Shown here: one piece after another, positions 23,678-34,909 of the stretch
How positions within the stretch are numbered: the stretch's first letter is position 1
Layout of the letters: each line of letters opens with the position of its first letter
Assembly (NCBI RefSeq): GCF_917627385.1
Contig: NZ_CAKJTL010000144.1
Span: 1 to 34,909, forward strand
Direction: 5' to 3'
DNA: 34,909 nucleotides
Source of the DNA: Protofrankia sp. CiT1
Lineage (GTDB): Bacteria; Actinomycetota; Actinomycetes; Frankiales; Frankiaceae
Notes under the pieces: model-generated
Seen by the model: only the letters and a program-made list of their open reading frames with translations
Databases searched by the model: none
What the model was told of the DNA's origin: nothing
Program-made: the position numbers and the translations under genes

Positions 23678-23681
23678 TGAA

Positions 23682-23841
23682 GAGCGACCGGCAATAGGGG
23701 ACGTGGCGTCGCGGGGCCAGGGCACGCACCTCGCGTCGTTGTCGTCGGCCCCGGTAGAAACACCGCTACCGGGGCCTCCGCCTCGCGACACACGCACCCC
23801 AGCCCCGCTTCTTGATCCATATTCCTATTGCCGGGCGCTCT
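23682..23841. repeat. Long palindromic repeat, copy B
   Basis: About 160 bp. It starts GAGCGACCGGCAATAGG and ends CCTATTGCCGGGCGCTC, so the termini form a near-perfect inverted repeat. Inner arms partly pair (GGGCACGCACCTCGCG on the left, CGCGACACACGCACCCC on the right), and the middle contains a second hairpin, GCCCCGGTAG / CTACCGGGGC. No open frame of note. Sits directly after tauD2. Confidence 0.8.
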
Positions 23842-24263: not shown

Positions 24264-25553
24264 GTGCCGGTGCACATACAGAGCCAGGTTCCGTCGCGGC
24301 CCACCACCGCGGGTCACCCCGGCACCACTGGTTCCGCCGCGGCTGTCCTGCGCGCCGTGCTCGACCACGGGCCGGTGGCCCGTACCCTCATCGGCCGGGC
24401 GACCGGGCTGAGCCCGGCGGCCGTGTCGAGGCAGACCGCGGATATGATCTCGCTCGGGCTGCTGCGGGAGGCGCCGGTGCCTACCGACCCACCTCGCGCA
24501 GGCCGGCCCTTCGTTCCCCTGGACATCGACACCCGACACCACATCGCCTGCGGTGTGCACATCGCGGTGCCCTTCATCACCTTCAGCCTGGTGGACCTGC
24601 GCGGCCGGGTACTGGCCGAGGAGAACATGCCCCACCACGGCGCGCCCGGCGAGGTGCTCCGCCAGATCGGCGAGCACGTCCCCCGTTTCACCGCGCGCCA
24701 TTGCCGGGGAAGCCGCCCCGTCGGCCTGGGCGTGGTCACCGGCGGCCGGGTGGATCCGCAGCGCGGTGTCATCCTTGAGCACAGCCTGCTGGGCTGGCGC
24801 GACGTGTCGGTGCGTCAGGTACTCGCCGCGGCGACGAGCCTGCCGGTCCACGTGGACGGCCACGCTCGCGCACTCGCCCAGGCTGAGATCCTGTTCGGGG
24901 ATCCACGGGCCCGACGCAGCCTGGTGCACCTGTTCGTCGGCAACGTCGTCGATGCGGCGATTGCCACTGGCGGCACAGTGCACCACGGCCGGCATTGCGG
25001 CGCCGGGGATGTAGCCCACCTGCAGTTGATGGATGTGCCGGTGACCTGCCCCTGTGGCCGCTCCGGCTGCCTGCAGGCAGCGATCTCGGAACAGACCCTG
25101 GTGGACCGGGCCATCCGGGCCGGATTGATCCAAAGCCCGGATATAGCGAGCCTGGTGGAGGTGGCCCGGCGCGGTGACCCCGGGGTGCTGGCGCTCGTGC
25201 GCGATCGTCTTCGCATTGTCGGCCGTGTGGTGGCCATGCTCCTGGACATGATTGACCCCGAGGTGCTCGTGCTCACCGAATGCACTACGATCTTCCTGCC
25301 GGAGCTGCTGGCCGACCTGTACGAAGAGATCGCGGCGCACTCGCGGTTGCGCGACAGCCCTGAGCTCACGGTGCTTCCAAGCAGCTTCGGCCCGCAGGCT
25401 CTCGCCGTCGCGGCGGGCGCGGCGGTGCTCGATGCCGTCCATCGCAGCCCACGAAGCCTAAGAACGCCCGGCAATAGGGGTGCGGATCAAGGAGCGGGGC
25501 TGGGGCACGCATCTCGCGTCGTTGTCGACGGTCGCAGCCCAACACCAGGGTGA
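24264..25553 (+). CDS. ROK family transcriptional regulator
   Basis: 429 residues from GTG 24264, chosen because GGAGGG lies six bases upstream; the frame is open further upstream but without a comparable site. An N-terminal winged helix (about 20-75: AAAVLRAVLDHGPVARTLIGRATGLSPAAVSRQTADMI) is followed by a ROK domain. The ROK zinc motif is intact: GAGDVAHLQ then CPCGRSGCLQ. The kinase DxGxT motif is replaced by GVHIAVPF and the sugar-binding Asn-Asp region reads VDGHARALAQAE, so sugar phosphorylation is unlikely and the ligand may not be a sugar. It lies behind a cysteine leader peptide beside sulfur scavenging genes, so it probably controls them. Residues 400-429 are encoded by palindromic repeat C. 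Confidence 0.88.
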   Translation: MPVHIQSQVPSRPTTAGHPGTTGSAAAVLRAVLDHGPVARTLIGRATGLSPAAVSRQTADMISLGLLREAPVPTDPPRAGRPFVPLDIDTRHHIACGVHIAVPFITFSLVDLRGRVLAEENMPHHGAPGEVLRQIGEHVPRFTARHCRGSRPVGLGVVTGGRVDPQRGVILEHSLLGWRDVSVRQVLAAATSLPVHVDGHARALAQAEILFGDPRARRSLVHLFVGNVVDAAIATGGTVHHGRHCGAGDVAHLQLMDVPVTCPCGRSGCLQAAISEQTLVDRAIRAGLIQSPDIASLVEVARRGDPGVLALVRDRLRIVGRVVAMLLDMIDPEVLVLTECTTIFLPELLADLYEEIAAHSRLRDSPELTVLPSSFGPQALAVAAGAAVLDAVHRSPRSLRTPGNRGADQGAGLGHASRVVVDGRSPTPG

Positions 25554-25626
25554 CTCTCTCCGCCGCCTCGCGATGCACGCACCCCAGCCCCACTCCTTGA
25601 TCCACTTCTCTATTGTCGGGGGCTCT
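25461..25626. repeat. Long palindromic repeat, copy C (overlaps ROK 3' end)
   Basis: About 166 bp with arms of roughly 55 bp. The left arm runs from AGAACGCCCGGCAATAGG through GGATCAAGGAGCGGGGCTGG to CATCTCGCG. The right arm is its inverted counterpart, from CGCGATGCACGCACCCCAGC through CTCCTTGATCCAC to GGGGGCTCT. The first 93 bp are read as the last 30 codons and stop of the ROK gene. Confidence 0.85.
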
Positions 25627-25651
25627 AATTTTCGGTGATAGTGGGACTACA

Positions 25652-27387: not shown

Positions 27388-27753
27388 CTGCACTTGTCGT
27401 AGGTGATGAGGTGGTGGAGGTTGTCGCCGGCGAGGAGGGCGATGGCCAGATGGATGGCGTCCAGCGAGCGGAGAACCGCTGGGGGCAAAGCGAGCGCGAG
27501 GTCGAGGACCGTCGCCGTCACCGACACGGCGGGGATGGTGCTGTCGCCGATCTCGATACGGTCCGACCGGCGGACGGCACGGGTCGCGACGTCCGCCGGG
27601 CCGATCGCGGTCAGGGCCCGTGCGGCCTCGACGGTGGTCAGCGCGGACGTGAGAAGCTCGCGGTCGGGGTGTGCGTCGAGATTGTTTGACCAGCGCGTCC
27701 GTTTCCGTCTCACGGCGGAGGAGCTTGACGACCGCACTGGTATCCAGATAGAT
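27388..27753 (-). pseudogene. VapC-type PIN domain toxin, degraded
   Basis: Reading starts at IYLDTSAVVKLLRRETETDA directly after the antitoxin stop, but no ATG, GTG or TTG is available. Near 27681-27687 the frame must shift by one base to continue as LDAHPDRELLTSALTTVEA, then LRSLDAIHLAIALLAG and HHLITYDK. All four acidic PIN positions can be traced across the two frames. After ITYDK the normal C-terminal helix is missing and the sequence runs into the 5' end of the ATPase gene. Missing start, frameshift and lost end make a functional toxin unlikely. Family assignment is firm; the cause of decay is inferred. Confidence 0.8.
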
Positions 27754-27755
27754 CG

Positions 27756-28076
27756 CTAGCGTTCGTCCTCGCGCGTGTCGTGCAGAACGTCTGTGGCGGT
27801 CCTGCCCGCCGGGACCGAGGGCAGGCCTTGTGCGGCGCTCGCCACGGCCGCGGCCGTGGCGTAGCCCGCCGGAGGAGGTTCAGGGATGAGGCCGTCCCGT
27901 ACCCAGCGGGCGAGCAGGCGTTGGGTACGGGCGATAGGGATGATCTCTGCGATCGGTTCCCCGCCGCGCGTCACCACCAGCCGCTCGCCGTGCTCGACGC
28001 GGTCGAGCACGCTCGCCGCGTGACGACTGAGATCGCGAGCGTTGATCGATGCCTGCCCAACTGTCATGCCTGACAT
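27756..28076 (-). CDS. Phd/YefM family antitoxin
   Basis: 106 residues. The N-terminal Phd fold is clear: INARDLSRHAASVLDRVEHGERLVVTRGGEPIAEIIPI, the form that binds operator DNA. The C-terminal tail normally wraps the toxin. It ends two bases before the degraded vapC coding stretch. With its toxin broken it may persist only as a DNA-binding protein. Start ATG 28076, or ATG 28067 three codons later. Divergent from the DprA-like gene. Confidence 0.88.
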   Translation of the reverse strand: MSGMTVGQASINARDLSRHAASVLDRVEHGERLVVTRGGEPIAEIIPIARTQRLLARWVRDGLIPEPPPAGYATAAAVASAAQGLPSVPAGRTATDVLHDTREDER

Positions 28077-28221
28077 GATCGACTTCTGTCAGGCGCAGCG
28101 TCAAGCGTCAACTGGCCGGGGTAGTCCACGAGCGCGATGTCGGTGTATATTCGCACGTATGTTCGGTTGCATTGTGAGGCGACTACGATCCCGCGGTACT
28201 CGCGTCCACTACGCTGGCGGC

Positions 28222-29130
28222 GTGGCGCAGCCGGGCATCGAGGAGCAGGCAGAGCTCGTCGCGCTGCTTCGAGAGCGACCGCGCGGGCTCAACTGGCTCC
28301 AGCTCGCCGGTGTTGTCCTGGAGAACGGGAGCGTCGCGGCGGCGCGGGCACAGCTCGTCGCTGAAAGCCTCTTCGGCGACGACGACCACGCCACACTGCT
28401 CGACGAAGCGCGGGGCGAGGTCCGTGCCTGGCATGCAGCCGGGCTGGAGTTCCTCTCGATCGTCGATGAGTGCTATCCGGCCCGCGTCCGCGACATCCAC
28501 GAGGCTCCCCCGTTTCTGTTTGCCCGCGGTCGCCTGCTTGCCGACGACAAGGCCGTCTCCGTCGTGGGTTCGCGCGAGGCGTCGGAGCGGGGCCTCCAGA
28601 TGGCCAGGTCCATCGCCGACGCACTGGTTTCGATGGAGCTCACCGTGGTTGCCGGTCTCGCGGCGGGGATCGACACCGCTGCCCACGAGACCACCATTGC
28701 CAGCGGTGGACGCACCGTGGCCGTCATCGGTACTGGGATCAACAGGTGCTACCCAGCCGGCAACCGCGGACTTCAGGAGCGCATCGCGGAGACGGGGCTG
28801 GTGCTGTCACAGTTCTGGCCAGATGCGCCGCCTCAGCAGCACAACTTTCCGATGCGTAACGCGGTGATGTCCGGCTACGGCATCACCACGATCGTCGTTG
28901 AGGCGGGGGAGCGTAGCGGCGCCCGCATTCAGGCCCGGATGGCGGTGCATCACGGCCGGCCCGTGATTCTGACCGATCTCGTCGTCAACAGCACCCAGTG
29001 GGGCAGGGAACTCGTCGGTCATCCCGACGTCTACGTCGCATCGTCGATCGCCGAGGTGAGAGCCGTGGTCGAAGAGCTTGCCGAACGTCCGAGCCGACTG
29101 GAAGCGGTTCTCAGTCAGATCACTGTCTGA
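28222..29130 (+). CDS. DprA/Smf-like SLOG-fold protein
   Basis: 302 residues from GTG 28222 (VAQPGIEEQAELVALL), where family sequence begins; earlier in-frame starts add unrelated arginine-rich sequence. The Rossmann-like core has VSVVGSREASERGLQMA, TVVAGLAAGIDTAAHETTI, GRTVAVIGTGINRCYPAGN, FPMRNAVMSGYGITTIVVEAGERSGARIQA. These are the DprA/SMF blocks, with FPMRNAVMSG where housekeeping DprA has FPxRNRxIAG. The winged-helix domain of true DprA is absent, and an extra N-terminal helical region is present. It is followed directly by a phosphoribosyltransferase. SLOG proteins bind nucleotides or ssDNA; a role in a nucleotide-based conflict system is more likely than transformation. Confidence 0.85.
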   Translation: MAQPGIEEQAELVALLRERPRGLNWLQLAGVVLENGSVAAARAQLVAESLFGDDDHATLLDEARGEVRAWHAAGLEFLSIVDECYPARVRDIHEAPPFLFARGRLLADDKAVSVVGSREASERGLQMARSIADALVSMELTVVAGLAAGIDTAAHETTIASGGRTVAVIGTGINRCYPAGNRGLQERIAETGLVLSQFWPDAPPQQHNFPMRNAVMSGYGITTIVVEAGERSGARIQARMAVHHGRPVILTDLVVNSTQWGRELVGHPDVYVASSIAEVRAVVEELAERPSRLEAVLSQITV

Positions 29131-29151
29131 TGGTCACCCGCTCGCCCGCTC

Positions 29152-29901
29152 TTGACACACTCCGCGACCTCGTTGGCAGAACGGGAAGCTTGTTCCTCGC
29201 GCAATGCGCGATGGGTACCCGGAGTTACTTGCAGCACCTGCGCAGGTATCCCAAACCCGGGCTTCCCCACCTGCTATAGGTGTGCCGAGCGAGTAGGTAG
29301 CGTCGGGCTGGCAGATCACCTCGGATTCGTCACCTACGCGTGGCCGAGGGCGCAGTCGGGGCAGACGATGCACGCCTACAAGCGCGGCGGTGCCACGAGC
29401 TATCAGCTAGTTGCGTCTCTTCTGACCTACGCCGTGGTCGCGCACTGGAACTGCATCGCGGACCGCGGCGGCACGCACCCGGACGCCTGGGCCTACGTCC
29501 CGTCGCTGTCTGGCCGACAGGGCCTGCATCCGCTCGCACGGATTGCTTCACAGTTCATGGGTCGAGTCCCGCATGTGCCCGTGCACGTGAGCGAGACGGT
29601 CGGTGATAAACGGTCGTTCAATCCAGCGCACTTCGTCCTGTCTCCCAGCGGCGCCGGCTCTCGCCATGTCCTCCTGCTCGAGGACACCTGGGTCGGCGGA
29701 GGGCGTTTGCAGTCGGCGTCCGCCGTACTCAAGGCTGCGGGTGTCGATCAGGTCACCGGCTCTCGGTGGCGCGATGGCTTGATCCCGGCAGAGAACCGAC
29801 GAAGCTTTTCATCGAAGGTCTCAAGGAGAACTTCGATCCCGACGTATGCCCGTACACGGGCGCGCACTGCTGACGATTCGAGGGCTCCCAGGGCCGGATG
29901 A
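29152..29901 (+). CDS. ComF-like phosphoribosyltransferase, C-terminus frameshifted
   Basis: 249 residues in the open frame. An N-terminal zinc ribbon (CSTCAGIPNPGFPTCYRC) is followed by LADHLGFVTYAWPRAQSG and the PRTase signature VLLLEDTWVGGGRLQSA with two acidic residues for ribose binding. Near 29756-29766 the family sequence leaves this frame. The following frame reads VARWLDPGREPTKLF, then FDPDVCPYTGAHC and a TGA at 29871-29873, 35 codons in all. The open frame instead ends in an arginine-rich non-family tail. Catalytic motifs precede the shift, so activity is possible but doubtful. Start: TTG 29152 is the first start in frame; an ATG overlapping the DprA stop (29129) lies in another frame. 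Partner of the DprA-like gene. Confidence 0.75.
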   Translation: MTHSATSLAEREACSSRNARWVPGVTCSTCAGIPNPGFPTCYRCAERVGSVGLADHLGFVTYAWPRAQSGQTMHAYKRGGATSYQLVASLLTYAVVAHWNCIADRGGTHPDAWAYVPSLSGRQGLHPLARIASQFMGRVPHVPVHVSETVGDKRSFNPAHFVLSPSGAGSRHVLLLEDTWVGGGRLQSASAVLKAAGVDQVTGSRWRDGLIPAENRRSFSSKVSRRTSIPTYARTRARTADDSRAPRAG

Positions 29902-30188
29902 GACGCTGTTGCCAGGAGCCTCTGGCCCTCGTGGTGTCCTCCCGCTTCCACCTGGCTCTGACCGGTGGTGCGCTGGTGAGCGTCCTTCCGCTGACCGCTC
30001 GGGAGCGGCCTGGCTGGGTCCATCGGGTCCGGATCGACATCTCCGGGAAGCCCACCAGCTGGGCCATCACTGAACAGGTCCGTACTGTCTCGGCCAACCG
30101 GCTCACCGGTCGCGGTCCGCTCTACCGGCTGAACGTCGAGCAGATAGCCGAGGTACGCACCGTGCTGGCCCAGATGATCGAATTCTGA
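29898..30188 (+). CDS. PemK/MazF-like toxin, probably 5' truncated
   Basis: 96 residues. LALVVSSRFHLALTGGALVSVLPLT, then HRVRIDI, WAITEQVRTVSANRL and a closing helix EQIAEVRTVLAQMI follow the order of the MazF/PemK endoribonuclease fold. The usual N-terminal strand (IRG-type opening) is not in this frame; a neighbouring frame reads LTIRG at 29868, so a small indel may have cut it off. No antitoxin is visible. It follows the phosphoribosyltransferase by about 24 bases and may be part of the same cassette. Family call is moderate because the N-terminal catalytic region is missing. Confidence 0.5.
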   Translation: MRRCCQEPLALVVSSRFHLALTGGALVSVLPLTARERPGWVHRVRIDISGKPTSWAITEQVRTVSANRLTGRGPLYRLNVEQIAEVRTVLAQMIEF

Positions 30189-30237
30189 ACCGGGCTTTCA
30201 GAACGTGACCCTTCATGGAGGCGATGATCGGCGTTTG

Positions 30238-30288
30238 TTTGTTGTCAGGTACGGTTTTCGGCCGGATCGGCGTACCTGACAACAAACT
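30238..30288. terminator. Long hairpin between convergent genes
   Basis: Perfect 17-bp arms GTTTGTTGTCAGGTACG and CGTACCTGACAACAAAC around a 17-base loop. Outer segments GATCGGCG and CGCCGATC extend it imperfectly to about 75 bp. It lies between the MazF-like stop and the zinc-finger gene stop, so it may end transcription from both sides. The AT-rich arms are unusual for this region. Confidence 0.6.
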
Positions 30289-30321
30289 CGCGCCGATCTT
30301 GTCGACGAACGGCAGCCGCCC

Positions 30322-33965: not shown

Positions 33966-34400
33966 ATGGAGCGGCGTGTTAGTTTGATTACAGTGGGTGT
34001 TGTTGACGTGCGGCGCGCTCGGGCGTTTTACGAGCGGCTGGGCTGGCAGGGCCAGGAGGTCGAAGAGACCGTGTTCTTTCAGGCCGGCGGCATCGCGTTC
34101 GTCCTCTGGGGCCGCGACAAACTCGCGCGCGACTGCGGTATTACGGACGGGCCGGCAGGTGGCTTCAGCGGCGTCGCCCTCGCGCACAATGTTCGGTCCG
34201 AGGCGGAGGTCGACGATGTCGTCGCGATGGCGGAGCGGGCAGGGGCCACGGTCACCCGTCCGCCGGCCAAGACGTTTTATGGCGGATATGCGGGGGTTTT
34301 CACCGACCTCGACGGCCACGCCTGGGAGATTGCGTACAACCCGGGCTTCCCGCTCGCGGCGGACGGCTCGATCACCGTCCCCGACTTCGCCGCTGGATGA
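33966..34400 (+). CDS. VOC family (glyoxalase/bleomycin resistance fold) protein
   Basis: 144 residues. The start LITVGVVDVRRARAFYERLGW and the end YAGVFTDLDGHAWEIAYNPGF are the usual VOC opening and closing patterns, with Glu in WEIAYN as a metal ligand candidate. The first repeat has a Val where many members carry a metal-binding His, so catalysis is not certain. A small cytosolic protein, possibly binding or modifying a small molecule. The ATG lies six bases after TACGCT, so the message may be leaderless. Confidence 0.88.
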   Translation: MERRVSLITVGVVDVRRARAFYERLGWQGQEVEETVFFQAGGIAFVLWGRDKLARDCGITDGPAGGFSGVALAHNVRSEAEVDDVVAMAERAGATVTRPPAKTFYGGYAGVFTDLDGHAWEIAYNPGFPLAADGSITVPDFAAG

Positions 34401-34464
34401 CCGGTTCCCCGCCGGATGACCGGTCGGGGCGTCGTCGTATGCGCCGTGCGGTGTGGCTGGCCGG

Positions 34465-34526
34465 TTCGGCAGATCGAAAGGTTATGGTTCGGCAGATCGA
34501 AAGATCGACATTCGGCGGATCGAAGG
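34465..34526. promoter_or_regulatory. Three 16-bp iterons at 23-bp period
   Basis: TTCGGCAGATCGAAAG at 34465-34480 and 34488-34503, and TTCGGCGGATCGAAGG at 34511-34526. Starts are exactly 23 bp apart, with unrelated 7-bp spacers. Each unit contains the dyad TTCG-N6-CGAA. They lie 21 bp before the start of the ATPase remnant, over its likely promoter, and look like an operator array. Confidence 0.7.
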
Positions 34527-34534
34527 GACGCTGC

Positions 34535-34540
34535 TATGAT
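34535..34540 (+). promoter_or_regulatory. -10 element TATGAT of the ATPase remnant, leaderless start
   Basis: TATGAT at 34535-34540 is followed by six bases and the GTG start at 34547, so the transcript would begin at or near the start codon. The -35 region falls within the third iteron, which would make binding there repressive. Confidence 0.55.
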
Positions 34541-34546
34541 CGCTGC

Positions 34547-34800
34547 GTGCGCAGGGCGGCTGACTATGTACCCAGACGAGCCGTAGAGCTGATCATGGAG
34601 GTGTTGTCCGACACGCGGGTCGTGGTCGTCAACGGTGCCCGCCAGGTCGGTAAGAGCACCTGGCCGAGGTTGTGCTGCGGGCGCGGGCCGACGGGGTGGC
34701 ACGGTTTCTCGATGATCCGGCGACCCGGGCCGCCGCTACCGAGGACCCGGTCCTGTTCATTCGCCACGACGGCCTGATGCTCAAGCGCGACCGGCAATAG
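34547..34800 (+). pseudogene. AAA ATPase (AAA_14/DUF4143 type), frameshifted and truncated
   Basis: From GTG 34547 the frame gives a normal family opening with VVVVNGARQVGKST, the Walker A region. At about 34660 one C seems to be missing: with it restored the sequence continues LAEVVLRARADGVARFLDD and DPVLFIRHDGLML. Family members then run for 300 or more further residues with Walker B and DUF4143, but here a TAG follows at 34798, inside palindromic repeat copy D. Only the first 85 or so residues remain. Confidence 0.8.
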
Positions 34801-34909
34801 GGGACGCGGCGTCGCGGGACTGGGGCACGCGCCTCGCGTCATCGCTCCCCGTCCATCGCTGCGCGAGGCACGGGTACCCCGGCTCGTCAGTCGCCACCCC
34901 CAACCGGGT
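34785..34909. repeat. Long palindromic repeat, copy D (runs to window end)
   Basis: Begins AGCGCGACCGGCAATAGGGG and continues GCGTCGCGGG, then GGGGCACGCGCCTCGCGTC, matching the left arm of copy B. After CGCTGCGCGAGGCAC it diverges, and the window ends before a right terminus is seen. It interrupts the AAA ATPase remnant. Confidence 0.7.

What the first reader, a model, noticed from the sequence alone, without database searches (positions are those of the whole stretch)
28222..30188. DprA/SLOG-like protein, phosphoribosyltransferase and MazF-like gene in one cassette
The DprA-like protein lacks the C-terminal winged helix of housekeeping DprA and is followed at once by a zinc-ribbon PRTase and a PemK/MazF-like protein. 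SLOG-fold proteins with linked PRTases have been proposed from comparative genomics as nucleotide-centred conflict systems; neighbours here (AAA+/nuclease-like ATPase, Phd antitoxin) are also conflict genes. A working idea is that the PRTase makes or salvages a nucleotide signal which the SLOG protein binds, with the RNase as effector.
Basis: partly seen in the sequence, partly recalled or inferred. Interest (0 to 1): 0.7.

Follow-up and report, generated by a model that had tools for sequence, protein, structure and literature searches.

The report
Broken remnant of ShosTA-like phage-defence pair
Two of the three genes are a decayed copy of a known two-gene bacterial anti-phage toxin-antitoxin pair (a DprA-like protein plus a phosphoribosyltransferase), and the third is an unrelated MazF toxin fragment that happens to lie next to it, so the proposed three-gene system is not real.

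Summary
The DprA-like gene (28222-29130) is real and intact. It lacks the winged helix and is not the genome's only DprA. The gene behind it was a zinc-ribbon phosphoribosyltransferase (PRTase), but in this copy its reading frame is broken twice (near 29200 and 29760). The annotated 249-aa ORF starts and ends out of frame. The MazF-like ORF is a 5'-truncated fragment: homology starts at 29918, the first ~30 residues are gone, and no cognate antitoxin lies beside it. Intact copies in the same genus sit elsewhere with their own antitoxin-like gene.

DprA->PRTase is a genuinely conserved two-gene operon in Actinomycetota. DprA lies directly upstream in 67 of 73 PRTase loci from named genomes, often with a 4-bp overlap. 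It also occurs on plasmids and, near the integrase, in two Gordonia phages. No third gene is conserved, and MazF is never adjacent. The intact PRTases match the ShosT defence model. A predicted structure is closest to H. pylori ComFC and E. coli ShosT.

Best reading: a decaying member of the ShosTA (DprA + PRTase) toxin-antitoxin/anti-phage family in a Frankiaceae genome. The signal-sensor-RNase model is not supported. Little novelty for this copy; the ComFC/ShosT resemblance is the most interesting by-product.

The parts
28222..29130 (+). DprA-like (ShosA-type) gene, GTG start, 302 aa, intact, no winged helix
   Evidence: Pfam PF02481 E 2.4e-59; PADLOC ShosA 205.6 bits, against 169 bits for the genome's housekeeping DprA; 88% aa identity to the same gene in a congener, dN/dS 0.21; 69% to Frankia sp. 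AgB1.9.
29130..29198 (+). PRTase (ShosT-type) gene, 5' segment; its ATG overlaps the DprA stop
   Evidence: 56% identity to residues 1-23 of the intact Frankia PRTase; same start in congener L140.
29200..29759 (+). PRTase gene, middle segment in a different frame: zinc ribbon C..C-C..C and PRPP loop (LEDTWVGGG)
   Evidence: About 64% identity to the intact Frankia PRTase, E 2.5e-81; key residues kept except D182E and T187G.
29760..29873 (+). PRTase gene, 3' segment, back in the first frame, ending ...CPYTGAHC stop
   Evidence: tblastn match to the C-terminus of intact relatives.
29152..29901 (+). Mechanical ORF reported as the PRTase; its N- and C-terminal ends are out-of-frame sequence
29918..30188 (+). 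3' fragment of a MazF/PemK gene, not part of the pair; N-terminal ~30 aa absent
   Evidence: 82-83% DNA identity begins exactly at 29918 in two congeners whose copies lie elsewhere; Pfam PemK E 1.1e-9.

Best explanation
The locus is a decaying copy of a two-gene DprA-PRTase module of the ShosTA kind. In intact members the PRTase (short, ComFC-sized, zinc ribbon plus a PRPP-binding PRT domain) would be the toxin: it consumes PRPP or disturbs the purine nucleotide pool, leading to DNA damage. The DprA-like protein would be the DNA-binding antitoxin that restrains it or repairs the damage, with release during phage infection. In this genome the PRTase frame is broken twice, so only the antitoxin-like DprA is still encoded intact. 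The MazF-like ORF behind it is an unrelated fragment joined at about 29918. Shown here: gene identities, the broken frames, the conserved two-gene order, the absence of a third gene, and the fold similarity to ComFC and ShosT. Inferred from published work on E. coli ShosTA: toxin/antitoxin roles, chemistry and phage defence. None of these was tested for the actinobacterial proteins.
For: 67 of 73 PRTase loci from named actinobacterial genomes have a DprA directly upstream on the same strand, 22 with the 4-bp overlap. A DprA-centred search of 396 genomes gave 11 other hits, all followed by a zinc-ribbon PRTase or its remnant. 53 of 57 intact PRTases match PADLOC ShosT, best E 9.4e-11. The PRTase model (pLDDT 96) has H. 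pylori ComF (Z 9.9) and E. coli ShosT (Z 9.0 and 8.9) as top VIA-align matches, ahead of ordinary PRTases at Z 8 or less. The DprA model aligns with ShosA 8zva at Z 28.1. The pair lies in the integrase region of Gordonia phages Vasanti and Bosnia and on an actinobacterial plasmid, and is sparse (about 3% of sampled genomes). Broken frames. Congeners carry other remnants of the same pair: one with intact DprA and a PRTase cut after ~28 aa, one with only the DprA 3' end and the PRTase 5' end. ShosTA biology: PMC9122126, PMC12593503.
Against: The window's own PRTase ORF gave no PADLOC or Pfam hit. Sequence similarity of the short PRTases to E. coli ShosT is weak and confined to the PRPP loop, and ComFC ranks level with ShosT in structure. 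Housekeeping DprA also matches the ShosA model (169 bits), so that hit alone is not diagnostic. The frame breaks could in principle be assembly errors, since the remaining PRTase residues are well kept.
Confidence: 0.83

Rival explanations
1. A three-gene nucleotide-signal system: the PRTase makes or salvages a ligand, the SLOG/DprA protein senses it, the MazF RNase executes.
For: The three homologies do lie in this order on one strand in the window.
Against: No MazF adjacent in any of 73 loci; no recurrent downstream gene family except between near-identical neighbourhoods; MazF is truncated and its relatives lie elsewhere with their own upstream antitoxin-like gene; the PRTase is frame-broken.
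Confidence: 0.03
2. A ComFC-DprA-like DNA-handling pair: the zinc-ribbon PRTase and DprA-like protein act on incoming single-stranded DNA (DNA uptake or recombination) rather than as toxin and antitoxin.
For: The top structural match of the PRTase is H. pylori ComFC (Z 9.9); 51 of 57 match NCBIfam comF at E up to 1; ComFC of C. jejuni and S. pneumoniae interacts with DprA (PMC9005727).
Against: Sparse distribution, about 3% of genomes; location on phages and plasmids; the genome has its own separate DprA; ShosT is within one Z unit of ComFC.
Confidence: 0.12
3. The PRTase gene is intact in the organism and the frame breaks are sequencing or assembly errors.
For: Most conserved PRTase residues are still present; the genome is a 191-contig draft.
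Against: Long neighbouring genes (DprA, ATPase, ROK, kinase, reductase) are open, while breaks cluster in accessory genes: VapC at 27.4-27.8 kb is also broken relative to intact copies. The MazF junction is a true truncation. Congeners carry other truncations of the same pair.
Confidence: 0.15
4. The DprA-like gene is the chromosomal DprA needed for transformation.
For: DprA family membership.
Against: A second DprA with a C-terminal wHTH region is on contig C158; the window protein shares only 40% over 126 aa with it but 38-88% over its length with PRTase-linked relatives.
Confidence: 0.03

Closest known systems
ShosTA toxin-antitoxin / anti-phage system (ShosA DprA-like, ShosT PRTase; PDB 8zva, 8zvb-d, 9vzo, 9w2p)
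   Same: Adjacent DprA-like and PRTase genes; PADLOC ShosA and ShosT models match the intact relatives; predicted folds match both solved proteins.
   Different: Order DprA then PRTase with a short 245-290 aa, zinc-ribbon PRTase (crystallised E. coli ShosT is 432 aa); the window copy has a broken PRTase; no function tested.
DprA-PRTase pair of E. coli P2-like prophages (PMC9122126)
   Same: Two genes of the same kinds; also carried by temperate phages.
   Different: Different phylum; sequences not compared here.
ComFC + DprA of natural transformation (PMC9005727)
   Same: Zinc finger plus PRT domain with a PRPP loop; top structural match; ComFC partners DprA.
   Different: Competence genes are, from general knowledge, housekeeping and not a two-gene operon on mobile elements; here the two genes are linked and sporadic.
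MazF/PemK toxins
   Same: C-terminal ~88 residues of the fold.
   Different: N-terminal part and cognate antitoxin missing in the window.

Membership tests
ShosTA (DprA-PRTase) system | DprA-like gene directly adjacent to a PRTase gene, same strand | tested here: met
   Window 29130 overlap; 67/73 and 11/11 relatives.
ShosTA (DprA-PRTase) system | PRTase recognisable as ShosT | tested here: met
   For intact relatives: 53/57 hit PADLOC ShosT, structure Z 9. The window ORF itself gave no hit.
ShosTA (DprA-PRTase) system | Both genes intact in this copy | tested here: not met
   PRTase frame broken twice. The window copy is therefore filed as a remnant of a member, not a working member.
ShosTA (DprA-PRTase) system | Toxin/antitoxin action and phage protection | not testable with these tools
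   Needs experiments.
Housekeeping DprA | C-terminal winged helix / sole chromosomal copy | tested here: not met
   The window protein ends in a single helix; another DprA on C158.
MazF/PemK toxin | Full fold including the N-terminal strand/loop with ..RRP, plus an adjacent antitoxin | tested here: not met
   Homology begins at 29918; intact congener copies have both.
ComFC | 4-Cys zinc finger + PRT domain with PRPP loop | tested here: met
   Four conserved Cys and DDTW.xG in relatives (the DDTW residues were part of the search pattern); ComF 7p0h Z 9.9.
ComFC | Requirement for natural transformation | not testable with these tools
   Needs experiments.

The most novel reading that the evidence does not exclude
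The actinobacterial zinc-ribbon PRTases linked to DprA are an evolutionary bridge between the competence pair ComFC-DprA and the ShosTA defence system, so that a DNA-handling pair was turned into a toxin-antitoxin module.
Probability: 0.3. Interest if true: 0.5.

Novelty: new member of a known kind. Interest (0 to 1): 0.2.

Why it matters
It removes a false three-gene system from consideration and places the genes in a known defence family. It also gives named, intact actinobacterial pairs (Frankia, Nocardioides, Actinomadura, Gordonia phages) with a compact ComFC-like PRTase that would be good subjects for asking how ShosTA arose and what its PRTase does.

Tried and rejected
A genome-contig scan with the window DprA alone found nothing; repeated with the PRTase alignment it worked. 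The PADLOC ShosA hit as proof of membership: rejected, because housekeeping DprA also scores 169 bits. Programmed frameshifting to explain the PRTase frames: rejected, because relatives are open in one frame. A conserved third gene: 68 downstream ORFs scanned, no shared family (only the 25 commonest families are listed) and no recurrent homologues apart from near-identical neighbourhoods. MazF near the pair: only L090, 3 kb away. The ShosTA structure/function paper (Pu et al. 2025) was not held, so its findings are cited through a review.

Full report
Observation. The window is contig C143 of a 5.0-Mb, 191-contig genome. The DprA-like gene at 28222-29130 is intact. Its predicted structure (pLDDT 95.6) matches DprA and ShosA crystal structures (Z 28-31) and ends in a single long helix instead of a winged helix. 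The genome has a second DprA on contig C158 with a C-terminal wHTH region.

The PRTase. Intact relatives show that the native gene begins at the ATG overlapping the DprA stop (29130) and ends at 29873. In the window the homologous sequence is in one frame to about 29198, in another from 29200 to 29759, and back in the first from 29760 to 29873. Two congeners hold remnants of the same pair. One has an intact DprA (88% aa identity, dN/dS 0.21) with the PRTase cut after about 28 residues. The other has only the 3' third of DprA and the first residues of the PRTase. PRTase loss with DprA retained, as in the window and in one congener, is what decay of a toxin-antitoxin pair would look like, but the sample is small.

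The MazF-like gene. DNA homology to two congeners starts sharply at 29918 (82-83% identity). Their copies carry the N-terminal block and an upstream antitoxin-like gene, and lie elsewhere, away from any DprA-PRTase pair. The window copy is a truncated fragment. Upstream of the pair, VapC beside Phd is also frame-broken, with intact copies elsewhere in this genome and in a congener. The segment is a patchwork of accessory-gene pieces: matches to congeners break at 27393/27394, 28138/28145 and 29918.

Survey. A scan of one genome per species with the PRTase alignment gave 73 loci, all Actinomycetota. In 67 a DprA lies directly upstream on the same strand, 22 with a 4-bp overlap. The scan pattern required the PRPP-loop DDTW, so conservation of that motif in this set is partly by construction. 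An independent DprA-centred search of 396 genomes found 11 relatives, each followed by a zinc-ribbon PRTase (three of a more ComF-like type, two broken). About 3% of sampled genomes carry the pair. It also occurs on plasmids and in the integrase region of two integrase-bearing Gordonia phages. No third gene is conserved and MazF is not adjacent anywhere.

What it is. 53 of 57 intact PRTases match the PADLOC ShosT model, with weak matches to the solved ShosT sequences. The AlphaFold model (pLDDT 96) has ComF of H. pylori (Z 9.9) and ShosT (Z 9.0, 8.9) as best structural matches, above ordinary PRTases at about 7-8. The margin over that background is modest. The ShosA match by itself is not diagnostic, because the housekeeping DprA also scores. 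The pairing plus the PRTase identity is what places it with ShosTA. An earlier survey already lists ShosTA in Actinobacteria, often on plasmids (PMC10482375).

Mechanism. For E. coli ShosTA, a review reports that ShosT is a phosphoribosyltransferase and pyrophosphatase that disturbs purine metabolism and causes DNA duplications and death, while ShosA binds DNA and counteracts this through recombination; phage T7 Gp0.7 is a trigger (PMC12593503). A DprA-PRTase pair from P2-like phages protects against T7 and lambda (PMC9122126). I infer the same division of labour for intact actinobacterial pairs. In this genome the pair should be inactive, because no intact PRTase is encoded at this locus and no second copy was found in the genome.

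Verdict. Interest is low for this copy; the joint resemblance of these PRTases to ComFC and ShosT is a modest lead.

Noticed in passing
25459-25629 and 23680-23841: A ~165-bp element with inverted ends (~47 bp), more than 35 copies at 82-86% identity in the same genome in both orientations; MITE-like or palindromic interspersed repeat.
   Followed up: no
30220-30300: A ~78-bp inverted-repeat element (CAGGTACG...CGTACCTGACAACAAAC) with many copies across the genus.
   Followed up: no
27394-28138: Phd-VapC pair with VapC frame-broken near its 5' end; intact copies at 92-93% DNA identity on another contig of the same genome (L143) and in a congener (L142).
   Followed up: yes
34397-34909: ATPase with a GARQVGKST P-loop motif appears frame-broken just after the motif.
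   Followed up: partly
L014:6063-10098 (Frankia sp. AgB1.9): Two different intact DprA-PRTase pairs lie back to back, divergently oriented, about 430 bp apart.
   Followed up: partly
L020, L025, L043: A second PRTase relative lies next to the DprA-PRTase pair, on the opposite strand or upstream.
   Followed up: no
L157, L158: Gordonia phages Vasanti and Bosnia carry an intact DprA-PRTase pair in the integrase region, annotated but not described as defence.
   Followed up: partly
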